Positions 30,764 to 35,345 of a stretch of DNA of 64,000 nt are shown here, in pieces (the first letter of the stretch is position 1; each line of letters begins with the position of its first letter). The notes beneath the pieces are model-generated. The model had not been told where the DNA came from. It did no database searches and saw only the letters and a program-made list of their open reading frames with translations. This stretch comes from Oscillospiraceae bacterium (lineage in GTDB: Bacteria > Bacillota > Clostridia > Oscillospirales > Ruminococcaceae), in contig SVMW01000009.1 in assembly GCA_015067215.1 (NCBI GenBank), positions 1-64,000 on the forward strand. Direction: 5' to 3'. The translations under genes were made by a program, and so were the position numbers.

Positions 30764-32119
30764 ATGATAAAAAAGAACGATATTATTACTCTGGAAATAA
30801 TTGATATTTCTTCCGACGGCAATGGTGTGGGCAAATATGAAAATATTGCTGTATTTGTACCGATGACCGCTGTAGGAGATGTTTGCAAGGTTAAAATACT
30901 AAAAGTTTTATCCTCCTACTGTTTCGGCAAGGTTGAAGAAATAATCACACCGTCCGCTGACCGCATTGAAAACCTTTGTCCCAACTTTTCAAAATGTGGC
31001 GGATGCGATTTTCTGCATATAAGCTATGAAGCAGAAAAGAAAGCCAAAACAAATTTTGTTAAAAGCTGTTTTGAGCGCATAGGAAAAATTGATGTACCTG
31101 TAAACCAGTGCAAGTCCTGCGACAAAGTGCACCGTTACCGCAACAAGGCGCAGTTCCCCGTGCGAAAAGATGAAAACAACAAGGCAGTAACAGGCTTTTT
31201 TGCTCAGCGTTCACACAGAATTATTCCCTGTAACGACTGTCTGCTGCAGCCTGAACTGCTCAACGAAATTGCCGAATATATTGTTGACAGACTTAACCAG
31301 CTTGGCATAAAAGCTTATGATGAAGAAAAACTGACAGGTCTGATACGCCATATTTATTTCCGTTACGGCGAAGTTACAGGCCAACTTATGGTATGCCTTG
31401 TATCCACAAAGAAAAAAGTATGGAACATTGATGTACTGGTTAAAGACCTTGTTGCAAAGTACCCTATGATTTCCACAGTTGTGCTAAATATAAACGACAA
31501 AAACACCAATGTGATTCTGGGTGAAGAAAACATTGTGCTTTACGGCAACGAAGTTATACAGGATGTGCTTTGCGGTGTAAAAATCACTCTCAGCCCGCAT
31601 TCTTTCTATCAGGTAAACCGTGAAGGAGCTGAAAAACTTTATACCATTGCAAAAGAAGCACTCTGTCTTACGCAGGATGATATTCTGCTTGACCTTTACT
31701 GCGGTGCCGGCACAATAGGGCTTTCAATGGCAAGAGATGTAAAAACACTTGTCGGGGTTGAAATTATCCCTGAAGCTATTGAAAATGCAAAAGAAAATGC
31801 AAAACAAAACGGCATTGACAATGCAAGATTTATCTGTTCCGATGCAGGCCAGGCTGCACAGCTGCTTGTAAAAGAGGGCTTCCGCCCTACCGCCATAGTG
31901 CTTGACCCTGCACGAAAAGGCTGTGACGAAAACACTCTCGATGCTGTGGTGGAAATGGCCCCGAGCCGTATTGCAATGATAAGCTGCAATCCTTCAACCG
32001 CTGCACGCGACTGCAGATATCTGGTTGAAAAGGGTTATAAGGTGCAGTTTATCCAGCCTTTTGACATGTTCCCCCGCACCAAACACTGCGAATGCGTGAT
32101 TCTGCTTTCACAAAATTAA
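30764..32119 (+). CDS. 23S rRNA (uracil-C5)-methyltransferase, RlmD/RumA family
   Basis: A 451-aa protein: an N-terminal TRAM domain (~1-60), an iron-sulfur cysteine cluster (CPNFSKCGGC with a distal CNDC), the SAM motif LDLYCGAGTIGL, VLDPARKG and the catalytic SCNPST. It makes 5-methyluridine in 23S rRNA (position 1939 and/or 747 by homology). It follows the lipoprotein by 8 bp. Which of the RlmCD-type positions it modifies cannot be told from sequence. Confidence 0.92.
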   Translation: MIKKNDIITLEIIDISSDGNGVGKYENIAVFVPMTAVGDVCKVKILKVLSSYCFGKVEEIITPSADRIENLCPNFSKCGGCDFLHISYEAEKKAKTNFVKSCFERIGKIDVPVNQCKSCDKVHRYRNKAQFPVRKDENNKAVTGFFAQRSHRIIPCNDCLLQPELLNEIAEYIVDRLNQLGIKAYDEEKLTGLIRHIYFRYGEVTGQLMVCLVSTKKKVWNIDVLVKDLVAKYPMISTVVLNINDKNTNVILGEENIVLYGNEVIQDVLCGVKITLSPHSFYQVNREGAEKLYTIAKEALCLTQDDILLDLYCGAGTIGLSMARDVKTLVGVEIIPEAIENAKENAKQNGIDNARFICSDAGQAAQLLVKEGFRPTAIVLDPARKGCDENTLDAVVEMAPSRIAMISCNPSTAARDCRYLVEKGYKVQFIQPFDMFPRTKHCECVILLSQN

Positions 32120-32195
32120 CCGTGCAGTATTGCATTTACATGCTTCATAAAAAAAATACATTTAAACCTGTATGCAACATTGGAGAATATACAGC

Positions 32196-33416
32196 ATGAA
32201 GCGAAAAATTTATTTTTGGGTAAAAAAACATATAAACAGCGATACCGTTAAAGTTGCAATGCTGGCTGTGCCGCTGGCTGTTATTCTTGTGCAGCAGATA
32301 GCCGAAGGAACTTTCAGCTGGACCGACTTTTTTGATGTCACTATTCTTGTTACCTTTGTATTTCTTGCAATATGTGATGCTATTGCAAAATTAGTCAAAA
32401 AAAATGTTTCCATAATTGCAGAAGATTCAGCAAAACTGAATAACGATTATGAAAAACTGGCAAAAAAATATAAATGCACAAATCTGGTAAAGTATAACGG
32501 GGTTGTATATCCTGAAGAATGTCTGTGGCTGCGCAGCGGCAATGAGAATATTATAATTGAAGATAACTGTGAAAAATACTACAGTTTACCATCGCTGATT
32601 GCCGATAACTCGCAGGAGATTATGGAAGTGCACAGCGCTTCTACTGTATATAATCAGATTAACATCCGTCTGGATGATTTCAGACAGGATGCTGACAACA
32701 ATTGTGTTGTTCTTAACACTTCCCGCACACAGTATTTTGATTCTTTGCTGACAAACCGCGCCTGTGACTATGTTTTAAGCAAAAAGAAAGTTACTATCCG
32801 CGAATTGTATGAACCGGGTCCTTTCCTGAAACCGTTGTCCCTGTCAAAGATGTCAAATCATCTTGGTTTTAACGGTTTTGTAATTACAAGCGATACCAAA
32901 ACCATTCCGTTTATACTCCGCAATAAAAACCTGTCTATTGCAAAAGGTTTGTGGGCCACAAGTATAGGTGCTTCTTTAAAAACAATGTATGCTCTTGATT
33001 TTAAAGACGGTTTTATGATGAATGAAAACTCTCTGAGCAATGCTATTATTGGAGAAGTTCATGATGAGCTTTATATTTCAGATGATACCGCATTGAACAA
33101 TGATAAAGTTGAGGCAAGCATTTTTGCTTTTTACAGAGATCTTGTTGAATGCGGAAAACCTCAGTTTCTGTTCTGTCTTCAGCTGGAAAACACCACAGAA
33201 GCAGAATTGCAGAAATTAATTACCAAAAAAAGAAACAAAAAAGAATCAACAACAGCAGATGGTGATACAGTATGCTTCTTCTCGGCCGAACAACTTAAAA
33301 AAGCTGAGTTTTACATTGATAAACTCATCATTGAAGGAAAAGAATATCATATGATGCCATCTTCAGTTGTATCCGTTGCACTGTTGCTGAAATATCTGGA
33401 CAGGCCTGAAAGCTGA
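32196..33416 (+). CDS. 2TM protein with a degenerate Nudix-like C-terminal domain
   Basis: A 406-aa protein of unknown function. Two helices (~18-34 and ~47-66) are followed by a short coiled-coil-like stretch (~72-92) and a soluble region. From ~222 it reads NHLGFNGFVITSDTKTIPFILR, a Nudix-type first strand, then a ruined Nudix box: G272-x5-N278-x7-G286-E287-V-x-D290-E291-x-Y293-I294 against the consensus Gx5Ex7REUxEExGU. Architecture resembles 2TM-Nudix effectors of CBASS immunity (Cap16-like), but no CD-NTase is present. ATG 32196 has GGAGA nine bases upstream; the track start at 32172 has none. Confidence 0.55.
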   Translation: MKRKIYFWVKKHINSDTVKVAMLAVPLAVILVQQIAEGTFSWTDFFDVTILVTFVFLAICDAIAKLVKKNVSIIAEDSAKLNNDYEKLAKKYKCTNLVKYNGVVYPEECLWLRSGNENIIIEDNCEKYYSLPSLIADNSQEIMEVHSASTVYNQINIRLDDFRQDADNNCVVLNTSRTQYFDSLLTNRACDYVLSKKKVTIRELYEPGPFLKPLSLSKMSNHLGFNGFVITSDTKTIPFILRNKNLSIAKGLWATSIGASLKTMYALDFKDGFMMNENSLSNAIIGEVHDELYISDDTALNNDKVEASIFAFYRDLVECGKPQFLFCLQLENTTEAELQKLITKKRNKKESTTADGDTVCFFSAEQLKKAEFYIDKLIIEGKEYHMMPSSVVSVALLLKYLDRPES

Positions 33417-33521
33417 TAATTACCATACAGATTCTGTTTTATTAACAATCATATCATCAAGCAACATACTCAAGATTTCTCATTACTTTTTTCAACAATT
33501 TTGTTTTTTAACCTTAAAAAT

Positions 33522-33758
33522 ATGAAACATAAATTCAAAAAATTATCATATTGGTCCTTTTCTCTGGCATTTGTAATTTTTGTATTTTCATACATACTTT
33601 ATCATTATTCAACACCGGCAGGATGGTTTACCTCTGCGTGGCAGTCTGCCCCGGGAAAACCTCTGATTACATTCCTTTTCAGCATATGGGGAGTAATGTT
33701 TCTGTTCAGTGGAGTACTAAACCTTTTAATTGCAAAAATATTTTTTACAGATAAATGA
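33522..33758 (+). CDS. Small 2TM hypothetical protein
   Basis: A 78-aa ORF with two strong hydrophobic helices (YWSFSLAFVIFVFSYILY and the FLFSIWGVMFLFSGVLNLLI stretch). No ribosome binding site is evident before ATG 33522 and the family is unknown. It lies between the 2TM/Nudix-like gene and the kinase, same strand, four bases from the latter. Confidence 0.45.
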   Translation: MKHKFKKLSYWSFSLAFVIFVFSYILYHYSTPAGWFTSAWQSAPGKPLITFLFSIWGVMFLFSGVLNLLIAKIFFTDK

Positions 33759-33762
33759 TATA

Positions 33763-34710
33763 ATGAACTTTACACTTCTGAATTATGCACTGGAACAATA
33801 TAATTTACAGAACAAAACAGCAACATTAACAGGCCATAATGAAAATATGACCTTTAATGTTGCTGACTTATTTATATTGAGAATTCATAAATCTGCCGAT
33901 GTTTTCAATTCTGATTTTCTTTACAAAAATTTATCCCGAAAAGAAATTCATAATACAGAAATGAATCTTCTGAATTATCTTTACAATAAAGGATTTAATG
34001 TTCAGCTGCCTGTTCTCAATAAATACGGAGAATATGTTTCCACTCTTCCTGACGGCACTTTTGCAACTGCAGTCAGTCGGCTTGAAGGAAAAAGTGCAGA
34101 CGATAATGATCTGACCATTGATTATTTCAGAAAACTTGGAGCTTTAATAGCACGCTTTCATAATATTTCAACAGATTTCATATCCGGCAATATTTTAAAA
34201 TATGATACCGCTCTTTGCGATATTCTGTTTTGTCAGCTTGATAAAGCAAACAGTAAAGAATACTTTAACAATACACATTACAACATACTTACAGATATAT
34301 GCTCTATAATAAAAGAAGCATTCTGCACAAACGGGCACAAATTTACTGTTGTACACGGAGATGTTTCACCTGACAATACGCTTATTACCCCTCACGGATT
34401 ATCCCTTATTGATTTTTCATTGTCCGGTATCGGACACCCTATGATTGATGTGGCTTGTATATACAGCTTTATCAAAAACGACGCTATGCGCAGTGCTTTT
34501 GAAGATGCATATACTGCTGGTGGCGGCACTGTTGATAAAGAAATGGTCAATATATGTTATGCATTCAATGAACTTATGGGCATTTTGCTACATATAGATA
34601 AACTATCAACCGAAAGCTGGTTTGAAAGCTGGCTGGACAGTTTATGTGCAAAAGTATTCATTCCTGCAATAAACGGAAAGGATATATTATGGAACAGATT
34701 GAACGAATAA
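33763..34710 (+). CDS. Aminoglycoside/choline phosphotransferase (APH) fold kinase
   Basis: A 315-aa protein with the APH-fold catalytic loop VVHGDVSPDNTLI and the metal-binding LIDFSLSGIGHPMIDVACIY. It phosphorylates a small molecule (choline, homoserine, sugar or drug); the N-lobe is too divergent to choose. The real start is probably ATG 33763 rather than the track's TTG 33730, which overlaps the upstream gene. Its end overlaps the next gene by 22 bp, so they are cotranscribed. Confidence 0.8.
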   Translation: MNFTLLNYALEQYNLQNKTATLTGHNENMTFNVADLFILRIHKSADVFNSDFLYKNLSRKEIHNTEMNLLNYLYNKGFNVQLPVLNKYGEYVSTLPDGTFATAVSRLEGKSADDNDLTIDYFRKLGALIARFHNISTDFISGNILKYDTALCDILFCQLDKANSKEYFNNTHYNILTDICSIIKEAFCTNGHKFTVVHGDVSPDNTLITPHGLSLIDFSLSGIGHPMIDVACIYSFIKNDAMRSAFEDAYTAGGGTVDKEMVNICYAFNELMGILLHIDKLSTESWFESWLDSLCAKVFIPAINGKDILWNRLNE

Positions 34711-35297
34711 AATACATGGAACAGCTTTTTGACAAAGCGTGTTCTGTTGTTTATAATCAAAATACAGAAAAAGCATATGTAACCGATATTCAGCCTGTTA
34801 TAAAAGAACTGTCCGATTATTACAGCAACGGTCTGTGGCTGAGTGATTATACCGCCGATGAACACGGAAAACTGCCTGTTAATCTTAAAAGAGGTGTTTT
34901 GTCTCAGGACGGGTTGTATAATCTGTTAAATGACAATGATATGCTGTTAAAAGAAATCTGCTGTGAAACAAAGGTGCATAAAATGAAAAAAGTAAAAATT
35001 ACTGCCGTGAGACAGGCACGATATGATGACCTGATTGAAAAATATGAAAACCCTATTAAACACGCCTGTGATGTAACTGAAGGACAGGTTTGGATTGCAA
35101 ACGGCTGGCAGAAACCTGAAGGTTTTTGTGACAGTGCCTGGGAAAGCATATCCCATTTTGTGATGACTCTTGCCCACGGCGGAGAAAACTTTTATGACGG
35201 CTGGATGAAAAACCCAAAATCTGCAATGATATCCTGCAATGACGGATTCCGCCCTGTAAGTTTTCTGATTGAAACGCTGAACGAAGACGCTGACTGA
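34689..35297 (+). CDS. DUF4298-TIGR04076 fusion protein
   Basis: A 202-aa protein. Residues ~2-88 match DUF4298 (IERIKYMEQ ... LSDYYSNGLWLSDYTADE ... LKRGVLSQDGLYNLL). Residues 99-197 match TIGR04076 (MKKVKITAV ... VWIANGWQKPEGFCDSAWESI ... LAHGGENFYDGWM). Both are usually separate small proteins of unknown function. GGAAAGGA supports ATG 34689. Codon 99 is an ATG (34983) with AAAGGTG six bases before it, so the second domain may also be made alone. Confidence 0.8.
   Translation: MEQIERIKYMEQLFDKACSVVYNQNTEKAYVTDIQPVIKELSDYYSNGLWLSDYTADEHGKLPVNLKRGVLSQDGLYNLLNDNDMLLKEICCETKVHKMKKVKITAVRQARYDDLIEKYENPIKHACDVTEGQVWIANGWQKPEGFCDSAWESISHFVMTLAHGGENFYDGWMKNPKSAMISCNDGFRPVSFLIETLNEDAD
34970..34985 (+). 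promoter_or_regulatory. Possible internal ribosome binding site and start
   Basis: AAAGGTG (34970-34976), six bases, then ATG (34983) in frame at the domain boundary of the DUF4298-TIGR04076 fusion. It may be functional or a relic of two formerly separate genes. Confidence 0.4.
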
Positions 35298-35307
35298 TAA
35301 AAAATTA

Positions 35308-35345
35308 AACCGATTGACTAAAAACAGAGTCAATCGGTTATTTTT
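35308..35345. terminator. Bidirectional terminator
   Basis: AACCGATTGACT (35308-35319) pairs with AGTCAATCGGTT (35328-35339), then ATTTTT. It lies between the fusion gene and the convergent tlpA-like gene. Confidence 0.9.

What the first reader, a model, noticed from the sequence alone, without database searches (positions are those of the whole stretch)
32196..33416. Orphan 2TM protein with a degenerate Nudix box, resembling CBASS 2TM-Nudix effectors
Two N-terminal helices are followed by a domain with a Nudix-type first strand and a recognisable but broken Nudix box (G-x5-N-x7-GEV-x-DE-x-YI). Catalytic Glu/Arg positions are replaced, so it may bind rather than hydrolyse a nucleotide. The architecture matches what is described for Cap16-like CBASS effectors, yet no CD-NTase lies in the window. 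Adjacent genes (small 2TM protein, APH kinase) are also orphan-like.
Basis: partly seen in the sequence, partly recalled or inferred. Interest (0 to 1): 0.65.

Follow-up and report, generated by a model that had tools for sequence, protein, structure and literature searches.

The report
Membrane-anchored bacterial relative of NUDT22
A rare gut-bacterial gene encodes a membrane-tethered protein whose soluble part resembles NUDT22, the human enzyme that splits UDP-glucose, rather than the CBASS anti-phage effector first suggested.

Summary
The ORF is real: 406 aa at 32196-33416, with two N-terminal hydrophobic segments and a Nudix-like soluble domain. The CBASS reading fails. No CD-NTase was found in seven genomes carrying the family or its distant relatives, Pfam Sa_NUDIX does not match, and profile comparison with three Sa_NUDIX (Cap16-type) proteins gives 0.2% probability. 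A 10-sequence AlphaFold model of residues 126-406 (pLDDT 74) matches human NUDT22 best: five NUDT22 chains rank first (Foldseek E 4e-8 to 6e-7, TM about 0.6, whole domain), ahead of the best other Nudix (2e-3). A 12-sequence profile matches NUDT22 at 90% probability; shuffles, MutT and Sa_NUDIX stay below 2.4%. NUDT22 is an active UDP-glucose hydrolase despite lacking a conventional Nudix box. Shared points are a T-x-Y-x-D-x-L-x-T-N motif before the Nudix domain and the E-x2-D-E of the Nudix helix, kept in all seven close members. So the 'dead enzyme' inference is weak. The gene is a rare mobile accessory: 1 of 16 congeners, in a variable slot behind an rlmD-like gene. Relatives sit in polysaccharide clusters or beside CRISPR, Thoeris-like, Abi and restriction genes. 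Best reading: a membrane-tethered NUDT22-type nucleotide-sugar hydrolase or sensor. Substrate and role are inferred, not shown.

The parts
32196..33416 (+). 2TM plus NUDT22-type Nudix protein, 406 aa plus stop
   Evidence: ORF; close homologues L002 61%, L003 40%, L004 38%, L005, L006, L048
32244..32303 (+). hydrophobic segment 1 (about residues 17-36), predicted TM helix
   Evidence: Kyte-Doolittle windows; helix in AF2 model 1
32328..32399 (+). hydrophobic segment 2 (about residues 45-68), predicted TM helix
   Evidence: helix 49-91 in AF2 model 1
32571..33413 (+). NUDT22-type cytosolic domain (residues 126-406)
   Evidence: AF2 pLDDT 73.6, pTM 0.69; Foldseek top five all NUDT22, E 4.4e-8 to 6.3e-7, TM about 0.6
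32724..32759 (+). R-T-x-Y-x-D-S-L-x-T-N-R motif (residues 177-188) of the N-terminal subdomain, shared with the NUDT22 stretch ending at residue 95
32859..32921 (+). first Nudix strands, HLGFNGFVITSD...R242
   Evidence: strands in AF2 model 2
33030..33071 (+). Nudix helix (residues 279-292) with E287, D290, E291
   Evidence: helix in AF2 model 2; 7 of 7 close members keep E..DE; NUDT22 has QEICDE
33153..33167 (+). invariant GKPQF (residues 320-324), family signature
30764..32119 (+). rlmD-like TRAM/uracil-methyltransferase gene; conserved left edge of a variable slot
   Evidence: Pfam; present in 16 of 16 genomes of the genus
34644..35297 (+). DUF4298 + TIGR04076 gene; right edge of the variable slot
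   Evidence: congener synteny

Best explanation
The protein is a membrane-anchored bacterial Nudix protein of the NUDT22 type. Two N-terminal helices hold it in the membrane. The cytosolic part has an N-terminal subdomain carrying a T-x-Y-x-D-x-L-x-T-N motif (inferred to hold the nucleotide, as I recall being reported for UDP in NUDT22), followed by a Nudix fold whose helix keeps three acidic residues (E287, D290, E291) suited to metal binding. It most likely binds a UDP-linked sugar at the membrane face and cleaves it to UMP plus sugar-1-phosphate. It is a rare, horizontally moving accessory gene that lands in variable islands, namely surface-polysaccharide clusters and defence islands, where it would locally lower or sense a nucleotide sugar. 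Shown here: gene, two hydrophobic segments, NUDT22-type predicted fold, conservation, patchy distribution. Inferred: nucleotide-sugar ligand, catalysis, biological role.
For: AF2 model of residues 126-406 hits human NUDT22 as the top five PDB chains, E 4.4e-8 to 6.3e-7, TMq 0.58-0.60 over 297-306 columns; the next Nudix (NUDT17) is 2.2e-3 with TM 0.35. hhalign of 12 family domains against the NUDT22 stretch: 90%, score 46.5; best of 100 shuffles 18.9, MutT 20.8, Sa_NUDIX 15-20. HMMER aligns the T-x-Y..T-N motif and the Nudix part colinearly to NUDT22. All PDB profile matches of the family up to the E-value limits were Nudix-fold proteins. Distant member L019 passes the Pfam NUDIX cut-off and profile-matches the family. 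E287/D290/E291 invariant in 7 of 7 close members. NUDT22 hydrolyses UDP-glucose (PMC10101856) and lacks a conventional NUDIX box (PMC5688067). Relatives L019 and L024 lie inside exopolysaccharide clusters with glycosyltransferase, nucleotide-sugar-dehydrogenase-like and epimerase-like genes read by eye; L003, L004 and L007 border polysaccharide genes.
Against: Sequence identity to NUDT22 is only 13-15% in the fold match, and the HMMER E-value for NUDT22 with the family profiles is 0.4-0.8. The AF2 model rests on 10 sequences and is of medium confidence, and L019/L024 in that alignment also help to pull it towards Nudix. The close-only profile gives 42%. Two distant members (L009, L010) have lost the acidic residues. 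The NUDT22 residues that contact UDP could not be checked (structure paper not held). Ligand identity and the polysaccharide link are circumstantial, and the window itself has no polysaccharide cluster near the gene.
Confidence: 0.55

Rival explanations
1. Stand-alone anti-phage effector: a 2TM protein that depletes or senses a nucleotide sugar, or disrupts the membrane, on infection, sometimes with a phosphatase-like partner.
For: Patchy distribution: 0 of 99 relatives and 0 of 294 other genomes of the order. Defence genes nearby: L048 lies among Cas3/Cas5 I-C, GmrSD and AbiD genes; L004 next to ThsB-type TIR genes, a caspase and DndB; L005 on a plasmid with a type IIG restriction enzyme; L007 near an Abi gene and an HD-CE ATPase. 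In L048 it is fused to, and in L006 overlaps, the same extra protein.
Against: No conserved partner across members. No defence gene was recognised among the large ORFs of the 64 kb window (read by eye). No base rate for defence neighbours was computed. Variable islands also carry polysaccharide genes.
Confidence: 0.25
2. CBASS Cap16-like (Sa_NUDIX) effector that has lost, or is separated from, its CD-NTase.
For: 2TM plus Nudix-like architecture, resembling the transmembrane-NUDIX layout described for Cap16 (PMC10419184).
Against: No PF18167 match; hhalign 0.2% to three Sa_NUDIX proteins, two of them next to a CD-NTase gene; no SMODS in seven genomes while both controls ring; the best fold match is NUDT22 over its whole length.
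Confidence: 0.03
3. Catalytically dead Nudix sensor: a membrane receptor that reads a nucleotide-sugar level without cleaving it.
For: Arg of the Nudix box is replaced in all close members; L009/L010 lost the acids; 2TM anchoring suits a receptor.
Against: E287/D290/E291 invariant in the seven close members; NUDT22 works without the conventional box.
Confidence: 0.17

Closest known systems
NUDT22 (human UDP-glucose hydrolase; PDB 5lf9, 5lor, 5lou)
   Same: Whole-domain fold match including the N-terminal subdomain, T-x-Y-x-D-x-L-x-T-N motif, E-x2-D-E Nudix helix, unconventional Nudix box
   Different: The bacterial protein has two N-terminal hydrophobic (TM) segments and a linker of some 50 residues before the modelled domain, an invariant GKPQF instead of NUDT22 GRASAEF, 13-15% identity; activity untested
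Sa_NUDIX / Cap16 CBASS effector (PF18167)
   Same: N-terminal hydrophobic anchor plus Nudix-like domain
   Different: No sequence or profile relation, about 240 aa against 406, no NUDT22-type subdomain seen, no CD-NTase near the target
Generic NUDIX (PF00293)
   Same: Fold; relative L019 passes the Pfam cut-off
   Different: Target itself has no Pfam match at E 1 or below; box Arg and loop Gly/Glu replaced
Isopentenyl-diphosphate isomerase and NUDT17
   Same: Weak profile and fold matches across the first Nudix strands
   Different: No shared N-terminal subdomain; far weaker than NUDT22

Membership tests
CBASS / Cap16 (Sa_NUDIX) | Match to PF18167 profile | tested here: not met
   No Pfam hit at E 1 or below; hhalign 0.2%, at most 1.1% singly
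CBASS / Cap16 (Sa_NUDIX) | CD-NTase (SMODS) encoded alongside | tested here: not met
   PF18144 absent from G000, G145, G187, G245 and the genomes of L002, L003, L004; both controls positive; MAGs incomplete
CBASS / Cap16 (Sa_NUDIX) | Activation by a cyclic nucleotide | not testable with these tools
   needs biochemistry
Nudix superfamily | Nudix fold | tested here: met
   AF2 model pLDDT 73.6; nearly all of the top PDB matches are Nudix-fold proteins; profile link to L019, which passes the PF00293 cut-off
Nudix superfamily | Canonical box G-x5-E-x7-R-E-U-x-E-E-x-G-U | tested here: not met
   Only E-x2-D-E retained; loop Gly/Glu and Arg replaced; NUDT22 also lacks a conventional box (PMC5688067)
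NUDT22 type | N-terminal subdomain with T-x-Y-x-D-x-L-x-T-N ahead of the Nudix fold | tested here: met
   Colinear alignment; fold match over the whole domain
NUDT22 type | Specific similarity above other Nudix proteins | tested here: met
   hhalign 46.5 against MutT 20.8 and shuffles at most 18.9; Foldseek E-value gap of over three orders of magnitude
NUDT22 type | UDP-glucose/UDP-galactose hydrolysis | not testable with these tools
   needs enzyme assay
NUDT22 type | Conservation of UDP-contacting residues | not tested
   structure paper not held

The most novel reading that the evidence does not exclude
A mobile, membrane-anchored NUDT22-type enzyme is an anti-phage effector that destroys UDP-sugars at the membrane on infection, held in check in some genomes by a fused or overlapping phosphatase-like partner. 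That would be immunity by nucleotide-sugar depletion.
Probability: 0.15. Interest if true: 0.8.

Novelty: new variant of a known kind. Interest (0 to 1): 0.48.

Why it matters
NUDT22 has been treated as an outlier among human Nudix enzymes (PMC5688067). A rare bacterial family with the same subdomain plus a membrane anchor gives it relatives to compare and a testable ligand class for an otherwise unannotated protein (no Pfam, NCBIfam or PADLOC name). It also warns that 2TM plus Nudix alone does not identify a CBASS effector. If the defence context proves functional, it would point to nucleotide sugars as a currency in anti-phage immunity.

Tried and rejected
Pfam, NCBIfam, PADLOC and PHROGs on the target: no meaningful hit. 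Full-length AF2 with 8 sequences failed (pLDDT 46.7; fold search meaningless). Viral contigs and phage records gave no relative. Searching more relatives by class, order, phylum and family gave few; among the weak hits, only L018, L019 and L024 were read as relatives. The extra protein fused in L048 and overlapping in L006 reads like a PP2C phosphatase by eye (CEDG, DGVT, YGDC, ASDGYP, DDR-Y), but Pfam and PDB searches found nothing, so this is not established. Conserved linkage of the target to the small 2TM or APH gene was considered and rejected: the small gene recurs without the target, and neither gene was seen beside the other members. An rlmD functional link was considered (overlap in L002, 76 bp gap here). 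It is weakened because the rlmD-like pair is 39.6% identical while the target pair is 61%, and congeners carry other cargo there.

Full report
Observation. The ORF at 32196-33416 encodes 406 aa with two N-terminal hydrophobic segments and no match at meaningful scores in Pfam, NCBIfam, PADLOC, PHROGs or PDB sequences. Relatives show that it is a real, conserved protein: L002 61%, L003 40%, L004 38%, two plasmid copies about 33-35% and L048. Invariant or near-invariant stretches include T-x-Y..T-N, SNH-x-GFN, E-x2-DEL and GKPQF.

Fold. Distant members bridge to known Nudix proteins. L019 passes the Pfam NUDIX cut-off (23.3 against 21.1 bits) and the L019/L024 pair aligns to the family profile at 91%. 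L011, which has a canonical RELWEESG box, aligns at 95%. Every PDB profile match of the family up to the E-value limits was a Nudix-fold protein (NUDT17, NUDT22, IPP isomerase). The first AF2 run on the whole protein failed (pLDDT 46.7). A second, on residues 126-406 with ten sequences, gave pLDDT 73.6 and pTM 0.69. Its top five PDB matches are all human NUDT22, E 4.4e-8 to 6.3e-7, TM about 0.6, spanning the whole domain; NUDT17 follows at 2.2e-3.

NUDT22 specificity. hhalign of the 12-member profile against NUDT22 residues 76-95 and 106-238 (letters taken from printed PDB alignments; residues 96-105 entered as X) gives 90% and score 46.5. With only the seven close members the score is 32.8 (42%), shuffles at most 20.6. 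The shared features are colinear: T-x-Y-x-D-x-L-x-T-N (NUDT22 LTSYRDFLGTN), the LG..T.D..R strand, and E-x2-D-E (NUDT22 QEICDE). NUDT22 converts UDP-glucose to UMP and glucose-1-phosphate (PMC10101856) and lacks a conventional NUDIX box (PMC5688067). From memory, and not checked because the structure paper is not held, its N-terminal domain was reported to bind the UDP moiety.

Catalysis. E287, D290 and E291, which I align with MutT E53, E56 and E57, are kept in all seven close members. The inference that the protein is dead is therefore not secure. Members L009 and L010 did lose E287 and E291.

CBASS. Sa_NUDIX (Cap16) proteins were fetched; two of the three, L012 and L013, have a CD-NTase gene directly adjacent. 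They are about 240 aa and show no relation to the target (0.2%). SMODS was absent from seven genomes carrying the family or its distant relatives while both controls were found. The MAGs are incomplete, so absence is not absolute, but the fold evidence already points elsewhere.

Distribution and locus. No match in 99 relatives or 294 other genomes of the order, and three of 390 others in the class, all distant. In congeners the slot behind the rlmD-like gene holds different cargo or none. The target is closer to L002 (61%) than the rlmD-like neighbours are (39.6%), which suggests horizontal movement, or slower evolution of the target.

Context. L003 lies among glycosyltransferase genes; L004 and L007 border polysaccharide genes; the relatives L019 and L024, which lack the clear 2TM start, lie inside exopolysaccharide clusters (gene names in unannotated loci are partly by eye). 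L048 is beside type I-C Cas, GmrSD and AbiD genes; L004 is beside TIR, caspase and DndB genes; L005 shares a plasmid with a type IIG restriction enzyme. No base rate was computed, so neither context is statistically established. L048 is fused to, and L006 overlaps, an unassigned protein with PP2C-like motifs seen by eye only.

Conclusion. NUDT22-type domain on a membrane anchor: well supported by prediction and profile evidence, not by a solved structure. Nucleotide-sugar ligand: likely by homology. Hydrolysis: plausible. Role in envelope-sugar control or in defence: open.

Noticed in passing
L006:9911-11990 and L048:560-2778: The target relative overlaps (L006) or is fused to (L048, with a frameshift) the same extra protein, with PP2C-like motifs by eye; homologues on Actinobacteria plasmids lie near S8 peptidase/MBL or mixed genes.
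   Followed up: partly
window 34644-35297: DUF4298 and TIGR04076 are fused in one ORF here, but are separate genes flanking other cargo in congener G012 (L053), so a deletion may have joined them.
   Followed up: no
window 32120-34688: Variable slot behind the rlmD-like gene: congeners carry acyltransferase, symporter, small membrane protein or nothing.
   Followed up: partly
L004:11634-14028: Two ThsB-like TIR genes, a caspase-domain gene and another TIR gene in a row, a Thoeris-like cluster with a protease.
   Followed up: no
L007:9515-10735: Copy on the Lachnospira eligens megaplasmid is broken into pieces, probably a decaying gene; the same in a second strain (L068).
   Followed up: partly
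L009:1234-2643: Relative interrupted by one TGA; L009 and L010 are both followed by a PfkB-like sugar-kinase gene and a dehydrogenase-like gene.
   Followed up: no
window 34729-34757: Perfect 12 of 12 sigma-70-like promoter match inside the DUF4298/TIGR04076 gene; a symmetric terminator-like hairpin at 35308-35339.
   Followed up: no
L005: Plasmid labelled Arthrobacter (pA34P1) whose proteins look Firmicutes-like by eye; the label may be wrong or the plasmid transferred.
   Followed up: no
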